From the NCBI GenBank assembly GCA_018669975.1, contig JABHSK010000009.1, positions 1 through 51,126 on the forward strand: a stretch of DNA of 51,126 nucleotides, given 5' to 3'. How positions within the stretch are numbered: the first letter of the stretch is position 1; each line of letters begins with the position of its first letter. Origin of the DNA: Candidatus Parcubacteria bacterium (lineage in GTDB: Bacteria; Patescibacteriota; Patescibacteriia; UBA1558; GWA2-36-10). A program made the position numbers and the translations under genes. Shown piece after piece: positions 28,161-49,449 of the stretch. Below the pieces are notes generated by a model. The model ran no database searches. It was not told the DNA's origin and saw only the letters and a list, made by a program, of their open reading frames with translations.

Positions 28161-29891
28161 ATGATTAGCGCACAAAATATACACATCGCTAAAGATGAAA
28201 CTAGCCAGAAACTAAGCTCCAAGCTTTCTACTATTGAACTCAAAGAAATAGAAAAAGAGGTAGAAAAAAAGGCGGAAGAACTAAGTCTGTCTTATATTAG
28301 CTTAGAAAAATTTCCAGTTTCCCAAGAGGCTATTAAAATAATAGCTCGCGAAAAATCAGAAGCATTGCAGGTTCTTTGTTTTTTGTATACTGGGGAAGAA
28401 ATGCGCTTAGCCTCACTTAATCCCAGTAATCCTCAGGTGACAAATCTAGCCAATGAGCTAGCAAAAAAATATCATACCCATGTTAAAACTTATCTTGTCT
28501 CACAAAACAGTTTTGATTTAGCTTTTGCTATTTACAAAAAAATACCTACCATAATACAAATAGAGGGCGTTAGTATAAGTGAAGATGATCTTAATAAATT
28601 TGATGAAAAATTAGCTAATTTTAAAGAACTAGAAAAGCTAATACAAGCAACTGGTTTAACAGAGACTATTAATTTGGTTATAGCAGCTGGTCTCAAGTTT
28701 GGTGCTTCCGATATACATATAGAGGCTGAGGAGCAGGATGTAAAAATTCGTCTGCGCATAGATGGTGTACTACACGATGTCGCTAAATTACCCACAACTT
28801 CTTGGGATAAAATAAACTCCCGCATTAAACTGCTGGCTGGCTTAAAATTAAATGTGGATGATAAACCTCAGGATGGACGTTTTACTATCACACTTAGTGA
28901 CGATAAGGTTGATGTCAGAACATCAACTATCCCCTCTGCCTTTGGACAGAGCATTGTTATGCGTTTACTCAAGGCCTCTAGCATTGGTCTAGAATTTGAA
29001 AATTTAGGCATCATGGGTAAATCCTTTAATGATCTCTCTGCTGAAATAGGCAAACCAAACGGCATGATTGTAACCACTGGTCCGACTGGCTCTGGTAAAA
29101 CCACCACCTTGTATGCCATTTTAAATAAGCTGAACCAACCTGAAAATAAAATAGTTACTCTAGAGGATCCGATTGAATATAAACTAAATGGTGTAGTGCA
29201 AAGTCAAATTGATAATACTGACACTGAAGAAGAGGTTGATGAAAAAACTGGCTCTGTTAAAAAAAAGGCTGGGTATACATTTGCTAAAGGGCTAAGGTCT
29301 ATACTTAGACAAGATCCGGATGTTGTCATGGTTGGTGAAATACGTGACCTAGAAACAGCTGACACAGCTATCAATGCAGCCCTAACTGGTCACCTAATGC
29401 TATCAACACTACACACTAATTCAGCTGCTGGTGCACTACCAAGATTTATGGCCATGGGCGTTAAACCTTTTTTGTTGGCGCCAGCTTTAAATGCTATCAT
29501 TGGTCAAAGATTACTTCGTCGTATTTGTGAACATTGTAAAATAGAAGATAAGGACATAGACAACGCTACTATGACTCTGATACTAAACTCACTTAATGAC
29601 ATTAGTCCTAAATCTGGACATAAACCTGATCTAAAAAATATAAAATTTTATAAGGCTGAGGGTTGTGAAGAATGCCACAACCTGGGTTATAAGGGTCGTA
29701 TTGGTATCTATGAAATATTTATTATGAATCCAGAAATAGAAAAAGTTATTCTTTCTGGACAAATATCTGAATATGAAATAGAAAAAATAGCTGTAGCTAA
29801 TGGAATGATTACCATGCTACAAGACGGACTCCTTAAGGCAATGGAAGGAATAACCTCTGTAGAAGAGGTACTCAAAGAGATAAAGGATTAA
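28161..29891 (+). CDS. pilB: PilB/GspE-family type IV pilus extension ATPase, stand-alone copy
   Basis: 576 aa. The N-terminal ~170 residues resemble a degenerate GspE/MshEN-like domain, followed by the ATPase core: ASDIHIEAEEQDVKIRLRIDG, Walker A TGPTGSGKTTT, Asp box EDPIEYKLNGVVQSQI, Walker B DPDVVMVGEIRD and His box TGHLMLSTLHTNSA. The tetracysteine zinc site (CEHC ... CEEC) marks PilB/GspE rather than the retraction ATPase PilT. Its own promoter and a GGA-type site precede ATG. A second PilB with equal length heads the pilus operon at 45.5 kb; this one has no adjacent pilC, so it may serve another filament or act in a specialised condition. Confidence 0.9.
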   Translation: MISAQNIHIAKDETSQKLSSKLSTIELKEIEKEVEKKAEELSLSYISLEKFPVSQEAIKIIAREKSEALQVLCFLYTGEEMRLASLNPSNPQVTNLANELAKKYHTHVKTYLVSQNSFDLAFAIYKKIPTIIQIEGVSISEDDLNKFDEKLANFKELEKLIQATGLTETINLVIAAGLKFGASDIHIEAEEQDVKIRLRIDGVLHDVAKLPTTSWDKINSRIKLLAGLKLNVDDKPQDGRFTITLSDDKVDVRTSTIPSAFGQSIVMRLLKASSIGLEFENLGIMGKSFNDLSAEIGKPNGMIVTTGPTGSGKTTTLYAILNKLNQPENKIVTLEDPIEYKLNGVVQSQIDNTDTEEEVDEKTGSVKKKAGYTFAKGLRSILRQDPDVVMVGEIRDLETADTAINAALTGHLMLSTLHTNSAAGALPRFMAMGVKPFLLAPALNAIIGQRLLRRICEHCKIEDKDIDNATMTLILNSLNDISPKSGHKPDLKNIKFYKAEGCEECHNLGYKGRIGIYEIFIMNPEIEKVILSGQISEYEIEKIAVANGMITMLQDGLLKAMEGITSVEEVLKEIKD

Positions 29892-36430: not shown

Positions 36431-37843
36431 ATGAAAAATTTCTTAAAAATATTCTTAATATTAGTACTATTTACTGGTATTTTAGCTCCTAAAGCTGACG
36501 CCTCAGGTAATTTGCTTATCAATAATATTAGTATTGATAACTTTATTAATGGCTCAGCTGAAATAAGATGGCGCACTAGCGAAACTAGCCGTGGCTTAGT
36601 TTATTTTGGTGAGGATAGAGAAAATCTGAACTACTTTGTTTCCTCAGGTAGCTATCAAAAATATCATCGCGCCTATTTCAATGGTCTAGAAGAAGATAAA
36701 ATTTATTATTATAAAATTATAGCTTTTACTCGTGACGGTGATGGTTCTGAAACTTTTGTTCAAAGTTTTAACACAAATGATATGATAGATACCGTTAAGC
36801 CTGATTTTACAAATGCAGAAATACTGCACACTACCGGTGATACCGTCAGCCTGTCCTGGTCAACCAATGAAGAGACGGTGGCCCAAATATACTATGGTGA
36901 TGATTTAGATGAAATGAATAGTGTAGCCAACTATGGAGCATTCCATAAAGACCATGAATTAATTATCTACCATTTAGCTCAAGGCCAAAGATTCTATCTA
37001 AAAATAATTGCTAAAGATAGAGGTAATAATACTAAAAGTTCAGATATATTTATCTTTAATACTCACGGACCAAATATAAGTAATGCTGTATTAGAGCTCT
37101 ACGATCTCGAACCTCTAAATTTTAATGAAGACCTAATCCAAGCCAAACAAGTAACTGTAAAATTTAAAAGTAATTTAGTATCTAGAAGTCAAATTTGGTA
37201 TGGTACTGCACCTGGTGCATACACAAAACTTGAACAAATCAACCAAGCTCTCCGTGATACTGAACATAAAATAACTCTAAAGGGTCTTGAACCCAATACA
37301 AGCTATTATTATATAATCGACCTATATGATGGGCTCTATGGTCGAGCTAAACGTACACAAGAATATAGTTTTACTACTCAACCAGAACAAAAACCATACG
37401 TGTTAGGAACAAAAATTGTTTCAGATGACATAGACAGTGATGGTGATGGCCTATCAGATAACTATGAAATAAATATAGGTACCAATCCGCTAGAACGTGA
37501 CAGTGATGGTGATGGTTATTCAGACGGCACTGAAGTACGACATGGGTATGACCCAAATGGTCCTGGAAAAATAATTAAATTAATTTATAATAAACCTAGA
37601 ATAGCTAACACCGTAGAGCAAGTGAAGGCTATCGAGCTTAAAAACTTACTAGAGAGTGAATTGGGGCAACTAAAATTAGGTCGCGAAGACTGGTTCACAG
37701 TAGTTAATGCTTACATCTACGGTGAGTATCCAGCACACGCCATTGCTCAAAGCATCCGCTTTGGTGGCAAGACAGTGCATCCAACTATTGGTTGGAATGC
37801 TTGGAAAAATACTAATGATTACCAAAGTTATATAAATCGATAA
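36431..37843 (+). CDS. Secreted protein with fibronectin-like domains and calcium-binding repeats
   Basis: 470 aa. Signal peptide at residues 1-24 (MKNFLKIFLILVLFTGILAPKADA, cleavage after ADA likely). Three beta-sandwich domains of fibronectin III / purple acid phosphatase N-terminal type follow, each ending like GLEEDKIYYYKI or GLEPNTSYYYIID. Then come two thrombospondin type 3-like acidic repeats (DSDGDGLSDNYE and DSDGDGYSDGTE) that should bind calcium. A C-terminal module with EDWFTVVNAYIYGEYPAHAI and HPTIGWNAW ends it; a related repeat ends the protein at 48019-49449. Likely a cell-surface or pilus-associated protein. A consensus promoter lies just upstream. Confidence 0.82.
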   Translation: MKNFLKIFLILVLFTGILAPKADASGNLLINNISIDNFINGSAEIRWRTSETSRGLVYFGEDRENLNYFVSSGSYQKYHRAYFNGLEEDKIYYYKIIAFTRDGDGSETFVQSFNTNDMIDTVKPDFTNAEILHTTGDTVSLSWSTNEETVAQIYYGDDLDEMNSVANYGAFHKDHELIIYHLAQGQRFYLKIIAKDRGNNTKSSDIFIFNTHGPNISNAVLELYDLEPLNFNEDLIQAKQVTVKFKSNLVSRSQIWYGTAPGAYTKLEQINQALRDTEHKITLKGLEPNTSYYYIIDLYDGLYGRAKRTQEYSFTTQPEQKPYVLGTKIVSDDIDSDGDGLSDNYEINIGTNPLERDSDGDGYSDGTEVRHGYDPNGPGKIIKLIYNKPRIANTVEQVKAIELKNLLESELGQLKLGREDWFTVVNAYIYGEYPAHAIAQSIRFGGKTVHPTIGWNAWKNTNDYQSYINR

Positions 37844-38070: not shown

Positions 38071-39081
38071 ATGCTTATGAACAAAACACAAACTGCTCGC
38101 CTAGAGGGCTTTGTCCTCAAAGAGGCAGAAAAATTTTTTGCAGACAAAGGATTCGTGCCACTGTTTCCACCAAAAGTGGTCCGTGCTTCTGGCGCCTGTG
38201 AAAACATCAACACTCTATTCGAAGTTAGTGTTGATAATAATCACAAATGGTTTAATAGAAATGCCTACCTATCACAAACCGGTCAACTATATTTAGAGGC
38301 CATGGTACCGTCCCTACAAAAAGTATATTGCGTTGGTCCATCATTTAGAGCCGAGGAAAAAATTGATAATAGGCACCTAACAGAATTTACCATGCTGGAA
38401 ATAGAATTTGCTGGAAATTTTGAGGAACTATTAGAATACGAAGAAAGCCTAATACACCATCTAGCACAAAAAGTGTCACAACACCCAAAGGCCCAGGAAG
38501 ACTTTGGTTTAAACGGTAAAGACTTGGAAAGACTGACTAAGTGTCCAACAAAATTCCAACGCTTTACCTATGATCAGGCTATTAAAAAACTAGAAGCGCT
38601 GGGAGAAGATATTAACTGGGGCGATGACATTTCTAGCCAAAGAGAAAAACTATTACTAGCAACGGTTGATAATCAACCGTTATTTATTACCCATTATCCT
38701 GACCCAATGTATGAAGAGCATAATGACATTGAAGTAGAAAAATTCTTCAACATGCTACCTTCTAAAGATAATCCCGGCCGGGTACTGAGTTCTGACCTGA
38801 TATTACCTTTTGGTGGAGAAGCAGTCGGAGCAGCTGCTCGAGTGCATATTTTAGAAGAATTAATAAGACGCTTAAAAAATTCCAAAATGTTCAAACGCCT
38901 AGAAGCTAAAGGTGGAGATCTAGATGACTTTGGGTGGTATATTGAACAAATAAAAAAGAATGGAGCAGTGCCCCATGCTGGCTGTGGTTTTGGTATGTCT
39001 AGAATACTTCAATATATCAGCGGCAAAACTAATATCACCGAAGCTGTTACCTTTCCCTCCAATAAAGGTAATATAATCTAG
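38071..39081 (+). CDS. AsnRS-like class II synthetase core without anticodon domain (asparagine synthetase-type)
   Basis: 336 aa, well short of the roughly 430-470 expected for AsnRS or AspRS. It begins directly with the catalytic core; the N-terminal OB-fold anticodon-binding domain is absent. Class II motif 2 is FRAEEKIDNRHLTEFTMLE and motif 3 is GCGFGMSRILQYISG followed by AVTFP. Such an AsnRS core without anticodon domain acts as an asparagine synthetase in some archaea (the AsnRS-related AsnA described in Pyrococcus). That assignment here is an inference. Starts 38071 and 38077 are both possible. Its stop overlaps the convergent pilX-like gene by 4 bases. Confidence 0.72.
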   Translation: MLMNKTQTARLEGFVLKEAEKFFADKGFVPLFPPKVVRASGACENINTLFEVSVDNNHKWFNRNAYLSQTGQLYLEAMVPSLQKVYCVGPSFRAEEKIDNRHLTEFTMLEIEFAGNFEELLEYEESLIHHLAQKVSQHPKAQEDFGLNGKDLERLTKCPTKFQRFTYDQAIKKLEALGEDINWGDDISSQREKLLLATVDNQPLFITHYPDPMYEEHNDIEVEKFFNMLPSKDNPGRVLSSDLILPFGGEAVGAAARVHILEELIRRLKNSKMFKRLEAKGGDLDDFGWYIEQIKKNGAVPHAGCGFGMSRILQYISGKTNITEAVTFPSNKGNII

Positions 39082-39488
39082 GGAACCAACTCATCCCAAG
39101 CACAATTTGAAATTTCCTGCGTGCAGGTATATCTAACCTTGCGCGTGGCCTCCGTAGTACTGGCAGTAGATTGTATATTAGAATTACAAACTCCGCCACC
39201 AGCACAACCACCGCTCTCCACAAACTGACTAGATACATTTATATTATCAACGCTTATGTCGCTGAATATTAAATTATTGGGTTGCTTCCTAAGCTGCATT
39301 AATGATTCCTCTACTCCTGATTCAGCTGCATAAAAAGTACGTATGGAATCTTTAAAAGACAACATACTAGACTTATTATTCAGCGATATAACCATAACCG
39401 ATAAAGAAATAGATAAAATAACCGCTGCTGTTACTATGGCAGCAATTAGGGCGGTGGCTCCGGATTGTGATTTTATAATTTCTTTCAT
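39078..39488 (-). CDS. PilX-like minor pilus protein
   Basis: 136 aa. An N-terminal hydrophobic helix (ATALIAAIVTAAVILSISLSVMVISL) after SQSG and the FYAAESGVEESLMQLRK segment are typical of the PilX/PilV N-terminal family of minor pilins. Unlike true prepilins there is no GF cleavage site; G9 in SQSGATAL sits at the boundary. Five cysteines in the outer domain (GGCAGGGVCNS, YTCTQEISNCAW) may form disulfides. It is the last gene of the six-gene pilus operon and ends against the AsnRS-like gene with no visible terminator. Confidence 0.72.
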   Translation of the reverse strand: MKEIIKSQSGATALIAAIVTAAVILSISLSVMVISLNNKSSMLSFKDSIRTFYAAESGVEESLMQLRKQPNNLIFSDISVDNINVSSQFVESGGCAGGGVCNSNIQSTASTTEATRKVRYTCTQEISNCAWDELVP

Positions 39489-39492
39489 AAGA

Positions 39493-40038
39493 CTAGCGAA
39501 TACTCATAAACGTATCAAAAGATTGCTGTGAGTACCCATGTAAGTTTAAAATATTTCCTGATGTTAGTACAAAATTTATTTCTGTGCCAGCAATAAAACT
39601 ACCACTACTATCTAATGTTGGAGATAGGACAAAATTACTTGCTACAACTGTATTAGTGTTTAAAATAATAGGAGTAGCTGTTGATTGGTCTGGAAATCCA
39701 GCTCCAACATCTTCTGTTTCTCTATACACTAAATTACCTAACTCTAGATGCAAACTAAATCTAGTTGTTGTTGCTTTATAAAAATGCAATTGATCAGGAT
39801 CTGGGCTAACATTAATTATCGTATCAACATTATGTATATTATTGTTAATAAAATTCATGACAAAACGAGCATTATTTTGAACTTCATTGGAGGCTTTTAT
39901 TTTTTTACGCACGTTCAAAACATTCATTACCAAACTACTAATAACCATCAAAATCATACTAGTAACAAAAATATATACTAGAGTTTCTATTAAGGTAAAA
40001 CCTTTGCCGTTATTTGTAATTGATATTTTTTTTATCAT
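39493..40038 (-). CDS. Prepilin-like minor pilin (PulG/PilW-type)
   Basis: 181 aa. KGFTLIETLVYIFVTSMILMVIS at residues 12-34 is the prepilin cleavage site and alpha1 helix with Glu at +5. A coiled segment (SNEVQNNARFVMNFINNNI) and a beta-rich C-terminal domain follow. It overlaps the upstream gene by 4 bases (ATGA) and lies 4 bases before the pilX-like gene. The operon position indicates a minor pilin in the initiating complex. Confidence 0.82.
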   Translation of the reverse strand: MIKKISITNNGKGFTLIETLVYIFVTSMILMVISSLVMNVLNVRKKIKASNEVQNNARFVMNFINNNIHNVDTIINVSPDPDQLHFYKATTTRFSLHLELGNLVYRETEDVGAGFPDQSTATPIILNTNTVVASNFVLSPTLDSSGSFIAGTEINFVLTSGNILNLHGYSQQSFDTFMSIR

Positions 40039-41933
40039 GGAAAAGTTGAATAACTAATGGTAACTTCTTCTAAAATTGGCACCTCTAAATCCGCCTGACT
40101 ATCCAGATATAATTTATACCTCATGTATCTCTGATTCAAATGATGCGTGTAGTTTATCAGCTCCCCAGATTCATCAGTGTAATAAGAGGTAGCTGTCCCA
40201 TCTGGACCAACAAAATTCCATGGTCCCAAAGAATTGTTACTAGTCGCTAATTGAAAGCGTATACTGGTATCTAATGGCTCCGTACCGGTAAATGCAATCC
40301 AGTTGTAAGCCACCTGATCACTACCCGTATCAAAAGTAGATGACTCTAATTCACCTATATCAGCATATTCACAATTTACTACTTCAGTAGAAATAATAAA
40401 AAATTCCTCTTGATTACCTGATGTGGCAGCATATATCAAAGAACAGTTTGCAGACATGCCCAACACATAACCTGTTAAATTAAAACCCGAAACCTGAATC
40501 ATAACTAATGGATCACTAACATCTAAGACAACCAATTCTTCGTTTAAAAAATTAGTCCCTAATAAAATATAAGGTCCAACTATAGAAAAGGAGTGCACCA
40601 TTTCCCCTATCTCATGCTCTCCTAATAATATTGGGTTTATTGGATTGGAAACATCAAAAATATAAAACTCTGGATACGAGCCACTATTTTCAGTCGACAA
40701 ATACGCTCTAGAGCCCCTAACAGCTACATCTGTACCTTTTAAAGACCCGTCTAAATTATACTGACCAACTAATTGCATAACAGTTGGAGTAGCCACACTA
40801 ACAATTTGCATCTCTTTATCAGCATCTTTGGTTGCTAAATATACATAATTGGCAGATAAAAATATCTTAGACGTATTATCATCTACTTCTATAAAGCTCA
40901 AATATTGTGCTGTAGTGGGATTACTAATATCAAATGAGTGCATTGTATCTCCCTGTACAATATAAGCATAATTACTATCAACGGCCACATCAGTAGCGTC
41001 TACGTTACTATCTAAATCATACTTAAAAATAACAGCGGGATACTCCTTGTCGCTAACATCTATAATTTGAAATTCTGCATTATTAACATGTGTAGATAAA
41101 TAAACATAATTTCCACGAGCTATTACTGAAGTTACTGAACCACCTATATTAAGCGATGATTCTTTAGATGTATTTTCTGGATCGGCGACATTTAAAACAT
41201 AAAATTCATCGCCTGATGGATTATTTTTTGTTACTAAATACGCATAGCCATCCAACTCAAAAACATCATTATCCTCAAAATTACCAGGTGTATCAAATGT
41301 ATCTGTAGTGGTTGCGTAACTCCAATCAATAAACCCTGAAACTAAACTTACTATTCCTGGTGTTCGAATATCAATACCTGTGTCCTTAGAAAAAAACATA
41401 TCTTCATCTGACCAGGTACTTTGCCCTGCGCCACCAAACCAGTCTGTTTGTGTCCATCGGTCAGCCTGCCAACGATGCCTATATGTTTCTAAGGTTTCTT
41501 GCTTACTAACACCTGTAGCACTAATCCAGTCAACGCTTACAGTAATCTTCTTTGTATCTGCGTCTAAATTAACACCTCCTATATCTCCATAGACATTACC
41601 ATTAGAAATATTAGTTCTATAAACTTCATCTATGGTCACTGTCCTTGTATATCTACCATCTATCACTTCGCTACCTGCAGACAACGTCCAGATGTCACTC
41701 ACTAAAACAGGGTGATGACCTCCGACCGTTAAATCACTCCAGTCAACTATCTTAGTAGCCTCCACTGCCTCGGTGGCATAAAATAACACTTGCAAGTCCT
41801 CTTCATTGATACGTCGCAATTTATTATTAGAACTAGTGATATGTAAAATTAAAATTGTGCTAATAGAAATAAAAGCAATGGCAACTAAAAGCTCTACTAT
41901 AGAAAATCCTTGATTGTTAATCCTCTTTATCAT
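40035..41933 (-). CDS. Giant prepilin with LVIVD-type beta-propeller
   Basis: 632 aa, about four times a normal minor pilin. NQGFSIVELLVAIAFISISTILILH at the N-terminus is a prepilin site with E5 (FSIVE). Residues ~200-510 contain six or seven LVIVD-like repeats of ~42 residues, seen as xxYVYLxT...EFQIIDVSDPxxP (for example EFYIFDVSNPINPILLG and ELVVLDVSDPLVMIQVSG), which should form a beta-propeller. The C-terminus is beta-rich. A pilin core carrying a propeller suggests an adhesin at the fibre tip. It is translationally coupled to both neighbours (4-base overlaps). Confidence 0.82.
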   Translation of the reverse strand: MIKRINNQGFSIVELLVAIAFISISTILILHITSSNNKLRRINEEDLQVLFYATEAVEATKIVDWSDLTVGGHHPVLVSDIWTLSAGSEVIDGRYTRTVTIDEVYRTNISNGNVYGDIGGVNLDADTKKITVSVDWISATGVSKQETLETYRHRWQADRWTQTDWFGGAGQSTWSDEDMFFSKDTGIDIRTPGIVSLVSGFIDWSYATTTDTFDTPGNFEDNDVFELDGYAYLVTKNNPSGDEFYVLNVADPENTSKESSLNIGGSVTSVIARGNYVYLSTHVNNAEFQIIDVSDKEYPAVIFKYDLDSNVDATDVAVDSNYAYIVQGDTMHSFDISNPTTAQYLSFIEVDDNTSKIFLSANYVYLATKDADKEMQIVSVATPTVMQLVGQYNLDGSLKGTDVAVRGSRAYLSTENSGSYPEFYIFDVSNPINPILLGEHEIGEMVHSFSIVGPYILLGTNFLNEELVVLDVSDPLVMIQVSGFNLTGYVLGMSANCSLIYAATSGNQEEFFIISTEVVNCEYADIGELESSTFDTGSDQVAYNWIAFTGTEPLDTSIRFQLATSNNSLGPWNFVGPDGTATSYYTDESGELINYTHHLNQRYMRYKLYLDSQADLEVPILEEVTISYSTFP

Positions 41934-42406
41934 GGTATATCAATTTGACCTGATGAATTAATGGTAACAGTACTAGTATTACTAGGTTGCACTAAAGTAA
42001 TAATGGAAACTGTACCGGTATTAACTGTTTGTCCGGTGAGTTTAGCAAAAACCACATCGGGACCATAACCTCCTACTCCATCTGCAAAACTAGAGCCAGG
42101 ACTAAATATCTGTGTGCCTTGTAATATACTTTCTTTATTATTGGGATCACTAACATTATAAAAATCTCCAGAAAACAGTACATATCGATCGGTCTCCATA
42201 TGGATTCCCCAGGATGCATTATCAGCTGATGCAGTAGCTAATTGTTGCGCTCTAAATAAAGAACTACGTAGCTCATCAGCTGAATTAGAAATTTGCACTT
42301 GCTTCTGCCAATTTTTATAAGCAGTTGTACTTAAAACATATATTAACACTGCAATAAATAGTGCTACTAGCACCTCAACCAAAGTAAAACCTAATTTATT
42401 TTTCAT
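41930..42406 (-). CDS. Prepilin-like minor pilin (GspH/FimT-type)
   Basis: 158 aa. KLGFTLVEVLVALFIAVLIYVL shows the cleavage site (G|F, Glu+5) and alpha1 helix. The next segment (ADELRSSLFRAQQLATASADNASWGIHM) is characteristic of GspH/FimT. The rest is a beta-rich domain with TVNTGTVSI and SSGQIDIP. It lies 3 bases after pilC and overlaps the propeller gene by 4. No cysteines. Confidence 0.82.
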   Translation of the reverse strand: MKNKLGFTLVEVLVALFIAVLIYVLSTTAYKNWQKQVQISNSADELRSSLFRAQQLATASADNASWGIHMETDRYVLFSGDFYNVSDPNNKESILQGTQIFSPGSSFADGVGGYGPDVVFAKLTGQTVNTGTVSIITLVQPSNTSTVTINSSGQIDIP

Positions 42407-42409
42407 ATT

Positions 42410-43456
42410 TTAGGCAAATGAATTTGTAAGTTCATACAGAGGACTGATAACAGACACCGCAATAAAACCAACTGCTAATCCAACGAGTATCAATAACACT
42501 GGCTCTATAATCATAGATAAGTTAGCTAGAACAGTACTAACTCTCTCCTCATAATAATCAGATACTTTCTTTAAAATATTTTCTAACTCACCAGTACTTT
42601 CTCCCACCTGACAAAGTTGAATTGTAATAGAGGGAAATAGATGCGCCCTAGCACTCATAGCTTCATGCAATGAAACTCCTTTTTCCAATTCAGTGGCCAT
42701 TTCCAAAATAACTTTACGATAACGATGGTTATCAACTGTCTTGGCAACTATCTGTAGTGATTCAACAATAGCTAAACCGGCTGATAACAATGCGTGTAAA
42801 TTTCCTGCAAAACGAGTCAACGACAATTCTTTAATGACATTGCCAGCTATAGGCGCCTTCAGTATAACTGTGTGTAACCATAGTTTAGGTTTTTTTAATT
42901 TGAAAATATACCTAATAAATACTGCAATGCCAATCAAGCCAGCTAACATAAACCAACCATACGCTCTAATGCTTTCATTTAAAAACTGTACGGCTATCAA
43001 AATAAACGGTAATTTTACACTAGAGCCCTCAAAAATTGATACCATCTGTGGGAAAACAAATAGGGCTAAAAATAAACTAACAACCACAATGGCTAGTAAG
43101 ACAATTGACGGATACATCAAAGCACCAAACACTTTACTGCGTAGTCTTTTTTGAGCTTTAAGTATTTCTGCTAAATGCCCTAGAGTATCTGCTAACATCC
43201 CTGTGTTTTCACCAACTTCGACTGTAGCAATAATCATTTCTGAAAAAACCTTAGGATGTTTCTTCATGCCCACAGACAGCAACTGCCCATTTTCAACTAA
43301 ATTGTAAAAGTGTTCTAAAATATTAGCTAATTTTTTATTCTTAGTTTCCTTGGCTAACGTCTTTATAGATGGCGCTAAAGCTAACCCGGCTTTCATCATG
43401 GTGGACATATTGTCCATAAAAACCATCTTATCGGTTAAACTAATGCCACCGAGCAC
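42410..43456 (-). CDS. pilC: PilC/GspF inner-membrane platform protein (core frame)
   Basis: Two GspF domains are visible: residues ~5-125 with MVFMDNMSTMMKAGLALAPSIKTL and VEVGENTGMLADTLGHLAE, and 205-340 with RFAGNLHALLSAGLAIVESL and CQVGESTGELENILKKVSDYY, separated by three membrane helices. PilC holds the ATPase and pilin at the inner membrane. GTG at 43456 is used here, but the frame is open up to base 43644 and reads as a lysine-rich extension. A frameshift at a run of eight A (43640-43647) separates it from the upstream 82-codon frame, which seems to be its N-terminus. The core itself looks intact. Confidence 0.88.
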   Translation of the reverse strand: MLGGISLTDKMVFMDNMSTMMKAGLALAPSIKTLAKETKNKKLANILEHFYNLVENGQLLSVGMKKHPKVFSEMIIATVEVGENTGMLADTLGHLAEILKAQKRLRSKVFGALMYPSIVLLAIVVVSLFLALFVFPQMVSIFEGSSVKLPFILIAVQFLNESIRAYGWFMLAGLIGIAVFIRYIFKLKKPKLWLHTVILKAPIAGNVIKELSLTRFAGNLHALLSAGLAIVESLQIVAKTVDNHRYRKVILEMATELEKGVSLHEAMSARAHLFPSITIQLCQVGESTGELENILKKVSDYYEERVSTVLANLSMIIEPVLLILVGLAVGFIAVSVISPLYELTNSFA

Positions 43457-43545
43457 GATACTCTTCTTTGCTTTTATATCTTTAACTTCACGTCCAGCTT
43501 TACTTGTTTTAACTTTAGTAGCTTTTAGCTTCTTCTCTAACTCTT

Positions 43546-43794
43546 CTACCCTCTTAGCTCCCTCTTTATTCTTTTCATCCTTTTTCTTTTCATCCTTTTT
43601 CTTGTCTGGCTTTTTCTTAGTATCTTTCTTTTTTTCACCTTTTTTTTAGGGCCTTTCTTCCCTGTATATAATTTAAAAGACGCATACTCTTTTTTGAGAG
43701 CCTGCTTTTGCTTGTCTTGGGCCATACTAACAACTGCCTTGGCCTCTATTTCAGTATCGTCTATAACTTGATGTTTGCTGTCTAGATACTTCAT
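43546..43794 (-). pseudogene. N-terminal fragment of pilC, split by a frameshift
   Basis: The frame starts at ATG 43794 (MKYLDSKHQVIDDTEIEAKA), 21 bases after the pilB stop, so it occupies the position of the pilC start. It runs well until GKKGPKKK at the poly-A tract, then changes to an artificial-looking lysine/arginine repeat. Adding one A to the tract would join it to the pilC frame, giving about 461 aa with an acidic/basic linker. Whether this is a real mutation, slippage during expression or a sequencing error cannot be decided here. Confidence 0.6.
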
Positions 43795-43815: not shown

Positions 43816-45546
43816 TTATTCCTTCCTAATACGTAAAACTTCTTCTATGGTAGTTAGACCTAGCAACGCTTTTTGCATGCCATCCTCAAAAATAGTAACC
43901 ATGCCCTGGGCTTTGGCTGCCTTATTTATTTCACCAGAGGAGGCGTTGCGTATAATACTAGCCTGCACATCGTCTTTATTTTCTAAAATCTCCATAACAG
44001 CCACCCTCTTTTTATAACCAGAATCACCACACCTAGAGCAACCTTTTCCCTTATAAAAACTGAGCTTATCAAAAGACTTTATTTTTTTCTCTGCAAAACC
44101 TAGCACTTTAAAACGCTGCAACATTTCCTCAAGGTCAAACTCCTTACTTAGACTAGTCAATGCTTCTTTGGATAAATGAAAACTTTCTATACAAGCTATA
44201 CAAATTCTACGCACCAAACGCTGAGCAACAACCACATTTAAAGTGGAGGCTGCTAAAAATGGCTCTACTCCCATATCCAACAAACGCGGCGGTGCACCAG
44301 ATGCATTGTTGGTATGCAAGGTAGATAGTACAAGGTGTCCAGTCAAGCCAGCTCGAACTGAAATTTGAGCAGTCTCTTTGTCACGAATCTCACCAATCAT
44401 GATTATATCAGGATCCTGACGCAGTAATGAACGTAAACCAGTCGCAAAAGTATAGCCTGCTTTTTCATTAACCTGAGTTTGATTAATACGATGAACACCA
44501 TATTCTATTGGATCCTCAATGGTGCAAATATTAACTAATTCTGTATTCAACATATTGAGAACTGTATATAAGGTGGTGGTTTTACCAGAACCGGTTGGAC
44601 CAACGACCAAAATCATACCAAAAGGCTTTTTGATCTGCCTTTCCATAATTTTAACATTTTTTTCTGAAAAACCTATATCTTCTAAAGTAAAATTTTGAGC
44701 TTCATCAGTCATTAATCTCATCACTACTTTTTCTCCATAAAAAGCAGGAATAATAGACACACGCACTGATTCCTCTTCGTCTTCTATTTTAAAAGAAAAT
44801 CGCCCATCTTGAGGAACCCTGTGTTCATCAATTCTTAAATTGGCTAAAATCTTTATTCGAGCTAAAAGAGCATCGTGCATAGAAGCTGGCAATTCAGCTT
44901 TATCGTGTAAATCACCATCAACACGGAAACGGATCACCACTGCATCAGGCAAAGCTTCAATATGTATATCTGAAGCCTGTTCAAAAATTGCATATTCTAA
45001 AATAGCATCAATAATCTTAATAACTGGTATCTCAATCTTGCTAACTTTACCATCCTTAGAAACAACTTCAGTGTTAAGCATGTCTGAAAGTTCCTTCTTT
45101 ATATTTTTTTCATAAAGACGAGTTGCAAATAGATAGTTCTTATAACTAGTCATAAAAACCTCCATTTTTTTCTTGGTCGCCTTTTTGACTAATGCTATTT
45201 TCTTTTTATCTAGAGGGTCAACAAAAGCAACTTTTAATGTCTTACCTTCCAAGCTAAAGGGAATTGCGTGGGCTTCGTTGGCTAAACCCTCTTCTATGGT
45301 GGTCAAAATCTTAGGATCAATTTTCCTCTTGCGTAAATTTACATAGGGAACATCCAACTTGTTGCTGATCAATTCATACAAATACCTCTCATTAAGAAAG
45401 CCCCTCTCAATCAAAACCTCCTCAACCCCACGGCGGCGGCGGCGAGCATTGTTTGTTGCGGCATCCCAGTCTGCTTTTTTGATAACCTTTAGGTCTATCA
45501 ATGTATTTTTTAAATCCTCCTGTGAAATTGGTAGCGATGAAGCCAT
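43816..45546 (-). CDS. pilB: PilB/GspE-family type IV pilus extension ATPase, operon copy
   Basis: 576 aa. N-terminal GspE/MshEN-type domain (ISQEDLKNTLIDLKVI ... ERYLYELISNKLDVPYVNL), then ASDIHIEALPDAVVIRFRVDG, Walker A VVGPTGSGKTTT, EDPIEYGVHRINQTQV, DPDIIMIGEIRD, GLTGHLVLSTLHTNNA and a tetracysteine site (CIAC ... CSRC). Residues 36-40 are a run of five arginines encoded by a short CGC/CGT repeat (45431-45447). First gene of the pilus operon; a promoter with TTGTGT and TATAAT at 17-base spacing lies 42 bases upstream. It powers pilus extension. Confidence 0.92.
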   Translation of the reverse strand: MASSLPISQEDLKNTLIDLKVIKKADWDAATNNARRRRRGVEEVLIERGFLNERYLYELISNKLDVPYVNLRKRKIDPKILTTIEEGLANEAHAIPFSLEGKTLKVAFVDPLDKKKIALVKKATKKKMEVFMTSYKNYLFATRLYEKNIKKELSDMLNTEVVSKDGKVSKIEIPVIKIIDAILEYAIFEQASDIHIEALPDAVVIRFRVDGDLHDKAELPASMHDALLARIKILANLRIDEHRVPQDGRFSFKIEDEEESVRVSIIPAFYGEKVVMRLMTDEAQNFTLEDIGFSEKNVKIMERQIKKPFGMILVVGPTGSGKTTTLYTVLNMLNTELVNICTIEDPIEYGVHRINQTQVNEKAGYTFATGLRSLLRQDPDIIMIGEIRDKETAQISVRAGLTGHLVLSTLHTNNASGAPPRLLDMGVEPFLAASTLNVVVAQRLVRRICIACIESFHLSKEALTSLSKEFDLEEMLQRFKVLGFAEKKIKSFDKLSFYKGKGCSRCGDSGYKKRVAVMEILENKDDVQASIIRNASSGEINKAAKAQGMVTIFEDGMQKALLGLTTIEEVLRIRKE

Positions 45547-47958: not shown

Positions 47959-48018
47959 ACCTTGCTCTATTATCATTGTTTGCTATACTTTATTAAATTA
48001 ATTAATCTAATAAAAACT

Positions 48019-49449
48019 ATGAAAAAAGCAATTTTTACGTTTATTGCTGTAATCTTAGCCCTACCAAATATAGGTCTAGCTACAAATCCTCCTGCTGATT
48101 GTAGCGATAATCTAATCACGCCGGTAGTCAGTGCTACAGAAAACAGCGATGACATCACTTTATCTTGGGAAGAAATTACCCATGAAGATCTAAATGGTTA
48201 TAAAGTGGTTATTTCTCAAAATGATTCCACACCAGTTTATCCAGCTAATGGTTATCTGAGATGGATCACTAACACCAGTATTGTCTCACAGGAAATAGAC
48301 AACTCCTCTTCTTATAGAAATGGAGATTTTGGCTCTTACTTGGATGAAGGCGAGGATTATTATTTCTCCATCACTGCAGTCTATGGTTGTGGTGAAAAAG
48401 TAGCTGGTAATGTCTTGCATTTAACCTACCCGGGAAGCAGCGACACAGACGACGACGAAGATGATGATGACACATCAAATGTGGCTACTCCTACTCCAGT
48501 GGTAAGTATTAGCTCCTCATCAGACGGCGTATTAGTCTCTTGGGAAAAAATTGATGACGCTAGATTCAATGGTTATAAAGTAGTAGCCTCAAAAAGTGAT
48601 TCTAAACCAGCTTATCCTGGCGATGGTTATTTAAAATATATAACCAATGAAGATACTACTAGCCATCTAATAAACAATTCCTCTGCTTATAGAAGTGGGG
48701 ACTTTGGATCATACTTCAAGGTTGATGAAGATTACTATTTCTCTATCACAGCCCTATATACCACTGGCAAAGTTGCTGGTAATGCCATTTTAGAGACCTA
48801 TGAAGGTCCAGAACATAACACACCAGTCAAACCAGACATTATTGTAGACCCAATAGTAGACATGGAGAAAAAAGCTCAATTATTATTAGGCAATAGCCTG
48901 GGAGATATTTTGGATGAATTAAAAGAATTACGTAGTATTGTTAAAGAACAACAAAATGAAATTAAGTATCTACGTTCTTTGGTAGCTGACGTAGCCAGTG
49001 TGGCCCAAAGTGTCAAAGATACCATCAATCAATTTATCACCTATGGTGTAGATACCAATACTAAGAATCTTGGTGAAGGTGAAAGAGCGGCAGTAATTCA
49101 TTCTTATAAATCTGCTTTTGGTAAATTACCAGAAAGCGAAGATGAAATGACAGATGCTATTAAAATCGCCAATGGTCGCTGGCCATCCAAAACCAATGAG
49201 GCTGCAGAACATAGGGCTAAGGTAGAATTCAAAAAAATATATCTACGTGATGCAAATATGGAACAGCCAAATGATAACGCCGCTGTGACTGTTATGGCTT
49301 ACGGCTTAAGACAAAGAGCTGAAAATAGAAACCTTAATAGTGAAACAGAGGGCATTAAAACTTTTAAATATATTTACAACAAATTACCAGAAACTACCGA
49401 GGATTGGAATATCATGCAATCTATTACGTATTCTGGCGCAACTCGATAA
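48019..49449 (+). CDS. Secreted protein with two fibronectin-like domains and C-terminal repeat module
   Basis: 476 aa from ATG 48019, which gives a good signal peptide (MKKAIFTFIAVILALPNIGLA); the frame extends 19 codons further up without function. Two nearly identical beta-sandwich domains follow (SWEEITHEDLNGYKVVIS ... and SWEKIDDARFNGYKVVAS ..., each ending DYYFSITAxY), joined by a DTDDDEDDDDTSN linker. A coiled coil (residues ~285-340) and a C-terminal region with two copies of an Fxx(I/A)YxKLPExxED(W/E) repeat complete it. Probably a surface protein. A terminator follows at 49471. Confidence 0.8.
   Translation: MKKAIFTFIAVILALPNIGLATNPPADCSDNLITPVVSATENSDDITLSWEEITHEDLNGYKVVISQNDSTPVYPANGYLRWITNTSIVSQEIDNSSSYRNGDFGSYLDEGEDYYFSITAVYGCGEKVAGNVLHLTYPGSSDTDDDEDDDDTSNVATPTPVVSISSSSDGVLVSWEKIDDARFNGYKVVASKSDSKPAYPGDGYLKYITNEDTTSHLINNSSAYRSGDFGSYFKVDEDYYFSITALYTTGKVAGNAILETYEGPEHNTPVKPDIIVDPIVDMEKKAQLLLGNSLGDILDELKELRSIVKEQQNEIKYLRSLVADVASVAQSVKDTINQFITYGVDTNTKNLGEGERAAVIHSYKSAFGKLPESEDEMTDAIKIANGRWPSKTNEAAEHRAKVEFKKIYLRDANMEQPNDNAAVTVMAYGLRQRAENRNLNSETEGIKTFKYIYNKLPETTEDWNIMQSITYSGATR

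What the first reader, a model, noticed from the sequence alone, without database searches (positions are those of the whole stretch)
40035..41933. Prepilin carrying a beta-propeller: candidate tip adhesin
A true prepilin leader is fused to a ~300-residue LVIVD-repeat propeller in the middle of a minor pilin operon. Minor pilins are normally about 150 residues. A propeller at the fibre tip could bind a host or partner cell surface, which matters since CPR bacteria are thought to be episymbionts.
Basis: partly seen in the sequence, partly recalled or inferred. Interest (0 to 1): 0.65.

Follow-up and report, generated by a model that had tools for sequence, protein, structure and literature searches.

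The report
Minor pilin carrying a propeller module
An ultrasmall bacterium encodes a pilus subunit with a seven-bladed propeller built into it, probably shown near the fibre tip to bind something outside the cell; it belongs to a known kind of 'modular pilin', but its operon and the exchangeability of this slot among relatives are mapped here.

Summary
The 632-aa protein at 40035-41933 (-) has a 9-residue prepilin leader, a modelled pilin helix and head, a seven-bladed LVIVD propeller (residues 205-515) and a C-terminal beta-sandwich. The operon is PilB-PilC-H-[this]-J-K, colinear with the comG operon without comGC; this gene fills the PilV/GspI/ComGE slot. Full-length homologues occur across the CPR phylum, and in 23 of 24 checked the gene lies just downstream of PilC (the last is cut by a contig end). 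In other genomes the same slot carries YCF48/BNR, LamG, DUF2341 or DUF4082 modules, or almost none, and one close pair shows a clear exchange. The window's own lineage keeps the LVIVD propeller, so here it looks stable.

A tip-displayed binding module is the best reading, inferred and untested. Precedents exist: modular pilins (2021 survey, which already lists a CPR pilin with 12 LVIVD motifs) and the TM7x propeller pilin PilX2, whose loss halves host binding. I call it a new member of a known kind.

The parts
40035..41933 (-). PilV/GspI/ComGE-slot modular minor pilin with LVIVD propeller, 632 aa
41907..41933 (-). prepilin leader, residues 1-9 (MIKRINNQG)
   Evidence: sequence; G9, F10, E14 invariant in six orthologues
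41460..41906 (-). pilin module: alpha1 (residues 10-62) and head sheet (63-158)
   Evidence: AlphaFold2 model
41334..41459 (-). connector, residues 159-200, motif QTDWxGGxGQxxW...DI...G.v.L
   Evidence: conserved in type A and type B CPR pilins
40389..41321 (-). seven-bladed LVIVD propeller, residues 205-515, net charge -32
40038..40373 (-). C-terminal beta-sandwich (carrier domain, second part), residues 521-632
43816..45546 (-). PilB/GspE extension ATPase with MshEN domain, 576 aa
   Evidence: T2SSE E 1.3e-126
42410..43794 (-). PilC/GspF platform; the reading frame breaks in a poly-A/lysine-rich stretch, so it appears as ORFs 43546-43794 and 42410-43456
   Evidence: T2SSF E 2.6e-54; tblastn against orthologues
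41930..42406 (-). FimT/GspH/ComGD-like minor pilin, 158 aa
   Evidence: ComGD E 5.7e-11
39493..40038 (-). PilW/GspJ/ComGF-like minor pilin, 181 aa
   Evidence: ComGF E 1.2e-7
39078..39488 (-). PilX/GspK/ComGG-like minor pilin, 136 aa, no Glu at +5 (G|ATALI)
   Evidence: position and sequence; PilX_N only E 0.36

Best explanation
The gene encodes a modular minor pilin in the I position (PilV/GspI/ComGE) of an accessory type 4 filament of a CPR bacterium. The genome's single prepilin peptidase would cut the leader after Gly9; the mature helix would join the H-I-J-K complex that caps the filament, assembled by the PilB and PilC of the same operon. The propeller, held in a loop of a carrier beta-sandwich, would then be displayed near the tip and bind a ligand outside the cell: a protein or glycan of a partner cell, or another surface. 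Shown here: architecture, operon, slot identity by profile and gene order, phylum-wide conservation, and module exchange in the slot in other lineages. Inferred: processing, tip location, surface display, ligand binding, any role in episymbiosis.
For: Architecture. Overlapping genes in the order PilB-PilC-H-I-J-K, with profile best hits ComGD, ComGE, ComGF in order. Single PilD elsewhere in the genome. 23 of 24 newly fetched full-length homologues lie in the same slot beside PilC, the last being cut by a contig end. The slot holds other binding-type modules in other genomes. In one close pair PilC is 81% and the pilin module 71% identical, while one insert is a BNR propeller and the other LamG, without real similarity. 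No PilY1 family match in the genome, in two family members, or in 95 class genomes, while a positive control genome rings. Precedent: deleting the propeller minor pilin PilX2 of Saccharibacteria TM7x lowers host binding from 10.6% to 4.6% (PMC12206443).
Against: No direct evidence of tip location, display or binding. The window-lineage propeller is as conserved as the pilin module (55-59% against 43-55% identity in four of five relatives) and has no significantly more conserved face (p=0.25), which does not point to a diversifying receptor-binding surface. N_methyl scores below its cut-off. No major pilin in the operon. The PilC frame is broken in this assembly.
Confidence: 0.6

Rival explanations
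1. The propeller is a structural or priming cap, doing for this filament what PilY1 does for T4aP assembly, with little or no ligand binding of its own.
For: No PilY1 match in the genome or in 95 class genomes. The full four-part architecture is kept at about 610-675 aa across distant CPR families. Propeller and pilin module evolve at similar rates in the window lineage.
Against: Related operons work with LamG or BNR modules or almost no insert in the slot, so a propeller is not generally needed for assembly.
Confidence: 0.2
2. The operon builds a Com-like DNA-uptake pilus and the propeller is a DNA receptor.
For: Gene order and best profile hits match comGA-GB-GD-GE-GF-GG; ComEC is present.
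Against: The propeller is acidic in all 31 homologues measured (net charge -3 to -47, -32 in the window). In S. sanguinis DNA binding is by ComGD and ComGF and ComGE mutants transform normally (PMC12153270). This concerns the propeller only; the pilus could still take up DNA.
Confidence: 0.07
3. The operon is a secretion pseudopilus (T2SS-like) and the propeller recognises exported substrates.
For: PilB and PilC score about as well against GspE and GspF as against PilB and PilC models; no major pilin gene in the operon; in T2SS the tip complex contacts secreted proteins (PMC10191384).
Against: CPR bacteria are thought to be monoderm, so an outer-membrane secretin is not expected (general knowledge; not searched here). 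Related operons of the class also carry PilM and further pilins.
Confidence: 0.08

Closest known systems
Modular pilins (S. sanguinis PilB and PilC; InterPro survey in PMC8179133)
   Same: N-terminal pilin module followed by a grafted domain not specific to pilus biology. The survey explicitly lists an 860-aa Candidatus Falkowbacteria pilin with 12 copies of IPR013211, which is the LVIVD repeat (PMC10210494).
   Different: Here the module is a single seven-bladed propeller that interrupts a carrier sandwich, in the I slot of a comG-like operon. S. sanguinis modules are a vWA domain and a lectin.
TM7x PilX2 (Nanosynbacter lyticus, PMC12206443)
   Same: CPR minor pilin with a seven-bladed propeller, in a genome with more than one type 4 pilus; experimentally linked to host binding.
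   Different: RCC1-type propeller at the C terminus of a PilX-type pilin with a noncanonical leader; here LVIVD-type, in the PilV/ComGE slot, with a G/F/E leader.
PilY1 (T4aP tip adhesin of diderms)
   Same: A propeller protein at the tip minor pilin complex, with a role in adhesion and priming.
   Different: PilY1 is not a pilin; PF05567 does not match this protein or genome.
comG operon / Com pilus (T4dP) of Firmicutes
   Same: ATPase, platform and H-I-J-K minor pilins in the same order; ComGD, ComGE and ComGF are the top profile hits.
   Different: No ComGC in the operon; ComGE is small; all hits are below the equivalog cut-offs.

Membership tests
Type IV pilin | Short basic leader ending in Gly, then a hydrophobic helix with Glu at +5 | tested here: met
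   MIKRINNQG|FSIVELLVAIAF; invariant in orthologues. N_methyl HMM 15.8 bits, below its cut-off
Type IV pilin | Extended alpha1 helix packed on a beta-sheet head | tested here: met
   AlphaFold2 model H12-62, sheet 71-162; packing judged from secondary structure only
Type IV pilin | Processing by PilD and assembly into filaments | not testable with these tools
   one PilD gene in the genome
Modular pilin (PMC8179133) | Pilin module plus a domain not specific to type 4 pili | tested here: met
   LVIVD E 9.8e-19, propeller in the model
Modular pilin (PMC8179133) | Grafted module has a direct role in a pilus function | not testable with these tools
   no experiment
ComGE (NCBIfam NF041013) | Score above the equivalog cut-off | tested here: not met
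   30.5 bits against a cut-off of 49, residues 6-59 only
ComGE / GspI / PilV slot | Position between H- and J-type minor pilins, after PilC | tested here: met
PilY1 (PF05567) | Match to the PilY1 propeller family | tested here: not met
   no match in Pfam scan or genome (with a positive control genome)
LVIVD repeat family (PF08309) | Repeats above the gathering score | tested here: met
   66.9 bits against 20.2; three repeats over the cut-off in the genome search

The most novel reading that the evidence does not exclude
CPR bacteria have a dedicated accessory type 4 pilus whose I-type tip pilin is a socket: a conserved frame (pilin head, connector and carrier sandwich) with a loop into which whole binding domains (LVIVD or BNR propellers, LamG and others) are inserted and exchanged between close relatives, setting which surface or partner cell the bacterium can hold.
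Probability: 0.3. Interest if true: 0.65.

Novelty: new member of a known kind. Interest (0 to 1): 0.42.

Why it matters
How CPR bacteria choose and hold partner cells is largely unknown, and type 4 pili are among the best-supported candidates. This work gives a precise gene slot, recognisable by PilB-PilC-H-[X]-J-K order and the QTDWxGGxGQ connector, where the likely binding module of a CPR pilus sits. It also shows that the module can be swapped, so modules could be compared with partner range. The window protein is one conserved example, with an isolated propeller that could be expressed and tested.

Tried and rejected
Sequence search of the PDB found nothing at E<=10, so the fold rests on Pfam and the model. 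Fold search in viral structures gave only generic multi-domain propeller matches. Foldseek of the carrier domain gave weak lectin/CBM jelly-roll matches (best E 1.5e-3, TM about 0.44, high rmsd): too weak to call it a lectin. Conservation of the propeller's loop faces showed no preferred face (p=0.25). DNA receptor: judged unlikely from charge. PilY1: no match; the first search lacked a ringing control, so it was repeated with one. The idea that the module is hypervariable in the window's own lineage was rejected. The separate '82-aa lysine-rich gene' between PilB and PilC was rejected: its first residues match PilC orthologues and the frame changes in a poly-A stretch.

Full report
Observation. 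The ORF at 40035-41933 (-) encodes 632 residues. Its ATG overlaps the stop of the upstream gene, and its stop overlaps the ATG of the downstream gene, both as ATGA, which is what translationally coupled operon genes look like. The N terminus MIKRINNQG|FSIVELLVAIAF has Gly at -1 and Glu at +5. The prepilin HMM is weak (15.8 bits against a cut-off of 21.2; not among the 18 N_methyl sites found genome-wide at E<=0.001), but six orthologues keep G, F and E, and NCBIfam ComGE matches residues 6-59 at 2.8e-7. LVIVD repeats score E 9.8e-19, and this gene is the only place in the genome where LVIVD rings. The AlphaFold2 model (mean pLDDT 85.4, pTM 0.62) gives a helix at 12-62, a pilin sheet at 71-162, seven blades ending at 515 (strand 208-213 lies where a closing strand would be expected; coordinates were not inspected) and a sandwich at 526-630. 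Its PDB fold matches for the propeller part are propellers such as the TLE6 WD40 domain.

Operon. On the minus strand the order is PilB (43816-45546), PilC (42410-43794, with a broken frame), H-type pilin (158 aa), this protein, J-type pilin (181 aa) and a K/PilX-like pilin (136 aa, no Glu at +5). Best NCBIfam pilin hits in order are ComGD, ComGE and ComGF, so the operon is colinear with comG except that no major pilin is present. All of these hits are below equivalog cut-offs, so I use them for slot identity, not for membership.

Other pilus loci in the genome. The genome (1.07 Mb, 10 contigs) has two further loci. Contig C10 holds a canonical set: PilN, PilO, PilB, PilT, PilC, three small pilins, PilD and small minor pilins. 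Contig C5 holds PilB, PilC and four enlarged minor pilins of 366, 1040, 434 and 332 aa, then PilM; the first carries Fib_succ_major, the second DUF2341 and the third LamG. Only one prepilin peptidase was found.

Relatives. In 192 genomes of the class, full-length relatives occur only in the window's family (47-58% identity), but N-terminal and C-terminal parts match in many proteins of other lengths. Named relatives are Komeilibacteria and Parcubacteria MAGs. With the orthologue profile, 380 genomes of the phylum gave about two dozen with all or most of the full four-part protein. Together with the four named relatives, 23 of 24 newly fetched loci have PilC just upstream of the gene, as a rule with the H pilin between; the remaining one is cut by a contig end. 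The architecture is therefore an old CPR family, not a local fusion. These loci were chosen by similarity to this protein, so their frequency is not an unbiased estimate.

An inserted module. In another CPR pilin group (type B, about 600 aa) the connector (RQTDWSGGSGQ...AGEIKL) is followed within 3-5 residues by the C-terminal domain (YxxSGxLISSTFDTG...). In the window protein the same two parts are separated by the propeller (between residues about 200 and 521). A model of the joined domain folds as one sandwich that uses strands from both sides of the join (mean pLDDT 77). So the propeller appears to sit in a loop of a carrier domain. The carrier's fold matches are weak lectin/CBM sandwiches, not enough to assign a function.

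Slot survey. Among 39 complete slot proteins related in their N terminus the length is 296-1514 aa (median 680), against medians of 161, 181 and 147 for the neighbouring pilins. Pfam finds YCF48/BNR, LamG, DUF2341 and DUF4082 modules in the slot of other genomes. On a PilC tree the window-locus PilCs form one supported clade, all with LVIVD, while the C5-locus PilCs of the same family form another with LamG, unrecognised or no modules. One sister pair (L057/L060) has PilC 81%, H pilin 75%, pilin module 71% and C-terminal domain 54% identical, but a 688-aa insert with a BNR propeller in one and a 375-aa insert with LamG in the other, with no real similarity. That is a clear exchange of module in an otherwise conserved operon. 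The survey was drawn by N-terminal similarity, which may favour enlarged slots.

Window lineage. Here the propeller is as conserved as the rest (55-59% identity in four of five relatives, 37% in the fifth), with no preferred conserved face. This suits a stable ligand or a structural role better than rapid host switching.

Function. In type 4 filaments the H-I-J-K complex sits at the tip (PMC10191384; PMC12153270). A bulky I pilin there would be exposed. PilY1, the usual propeller at that place in diderms, was not found in this genome, in two relatives, or in 95 class genomes, while a control genome rang. A CPR propeller minor pilin, TM7x PilX2, contributes to host binding (PMC12206443). I therefore favour a tip-displayed binding module (0.6). 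A PilY1-like structural or priming role is the main rival (0.2). A DNA receptor is unlikely because the propeller is acidic in all 31 homologues and ComGE is not the DNA binder in S. sanguinis, although the genome has ComEC.

Novelty. Modular pilins are an established kind, and the 2021 survey already mentions a CPR pilin with 12 IPR013211 motifs (PMC8179133); IPR013211 is LVIVD (PMC10210494). The library held no paper naming LVIVD together with pilin, but that library is partial. What appears undescribed in the papers I could search is the nested insertion, the fixed I slot and the documented exchange. I therefore file the protein as a new member of a known kind, with the socket idea as the more novel reading.

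Noticed in passing
window 43450-43794 (-): The PilC reading frame breaks inside a poly-A, lysine-rich stretch; PilC orthologues are continuous. Either an assembly error or a real (possibly phase-variable) frameshift.
   Followed up: partly
L009 (contig C5) 2040-8580 (-): A second accessory pilus operon in which all four minor pilins are enlarged: 366 aa with Fib_succ_major, 1040 aa with DUF2341, 434 aa with LamG, 332 aa Cys-rich.
   Followed up: partly
window 28161-29891 (+): An orphan PilB/GspE-type ATPase (T2SSE E 2.6e-118) with no PilC or pilins beside it, between a putative membrane protein gene and a tRNA synthetase-like gene.
   Followed up: no
window 36431-37843 (+) and 47962-49449 (+): Two proteins with hydrophobic N-terminal stretches and fibronectin-like domains (one also with TSP3 repeats) near the pilus operon; possible surface proteins.
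   Followed up: no
L107 4683-14999 (+), L108 3-10271 (-): Very long ORFs (over 3,400 aa, open at the locus end) in related genomes with propeller-region matches to this protein, probably giant surface proteins.
   Followed up: no
L089, L091, L096, L101, L103, L106 (type B pilins): A second CPR pilin group of about 600 aa, often right after PilC, with the same carrier domain but no insert in it; one has a CarboxypepD_reg domain earlier in the chain.
   Followed up: partly
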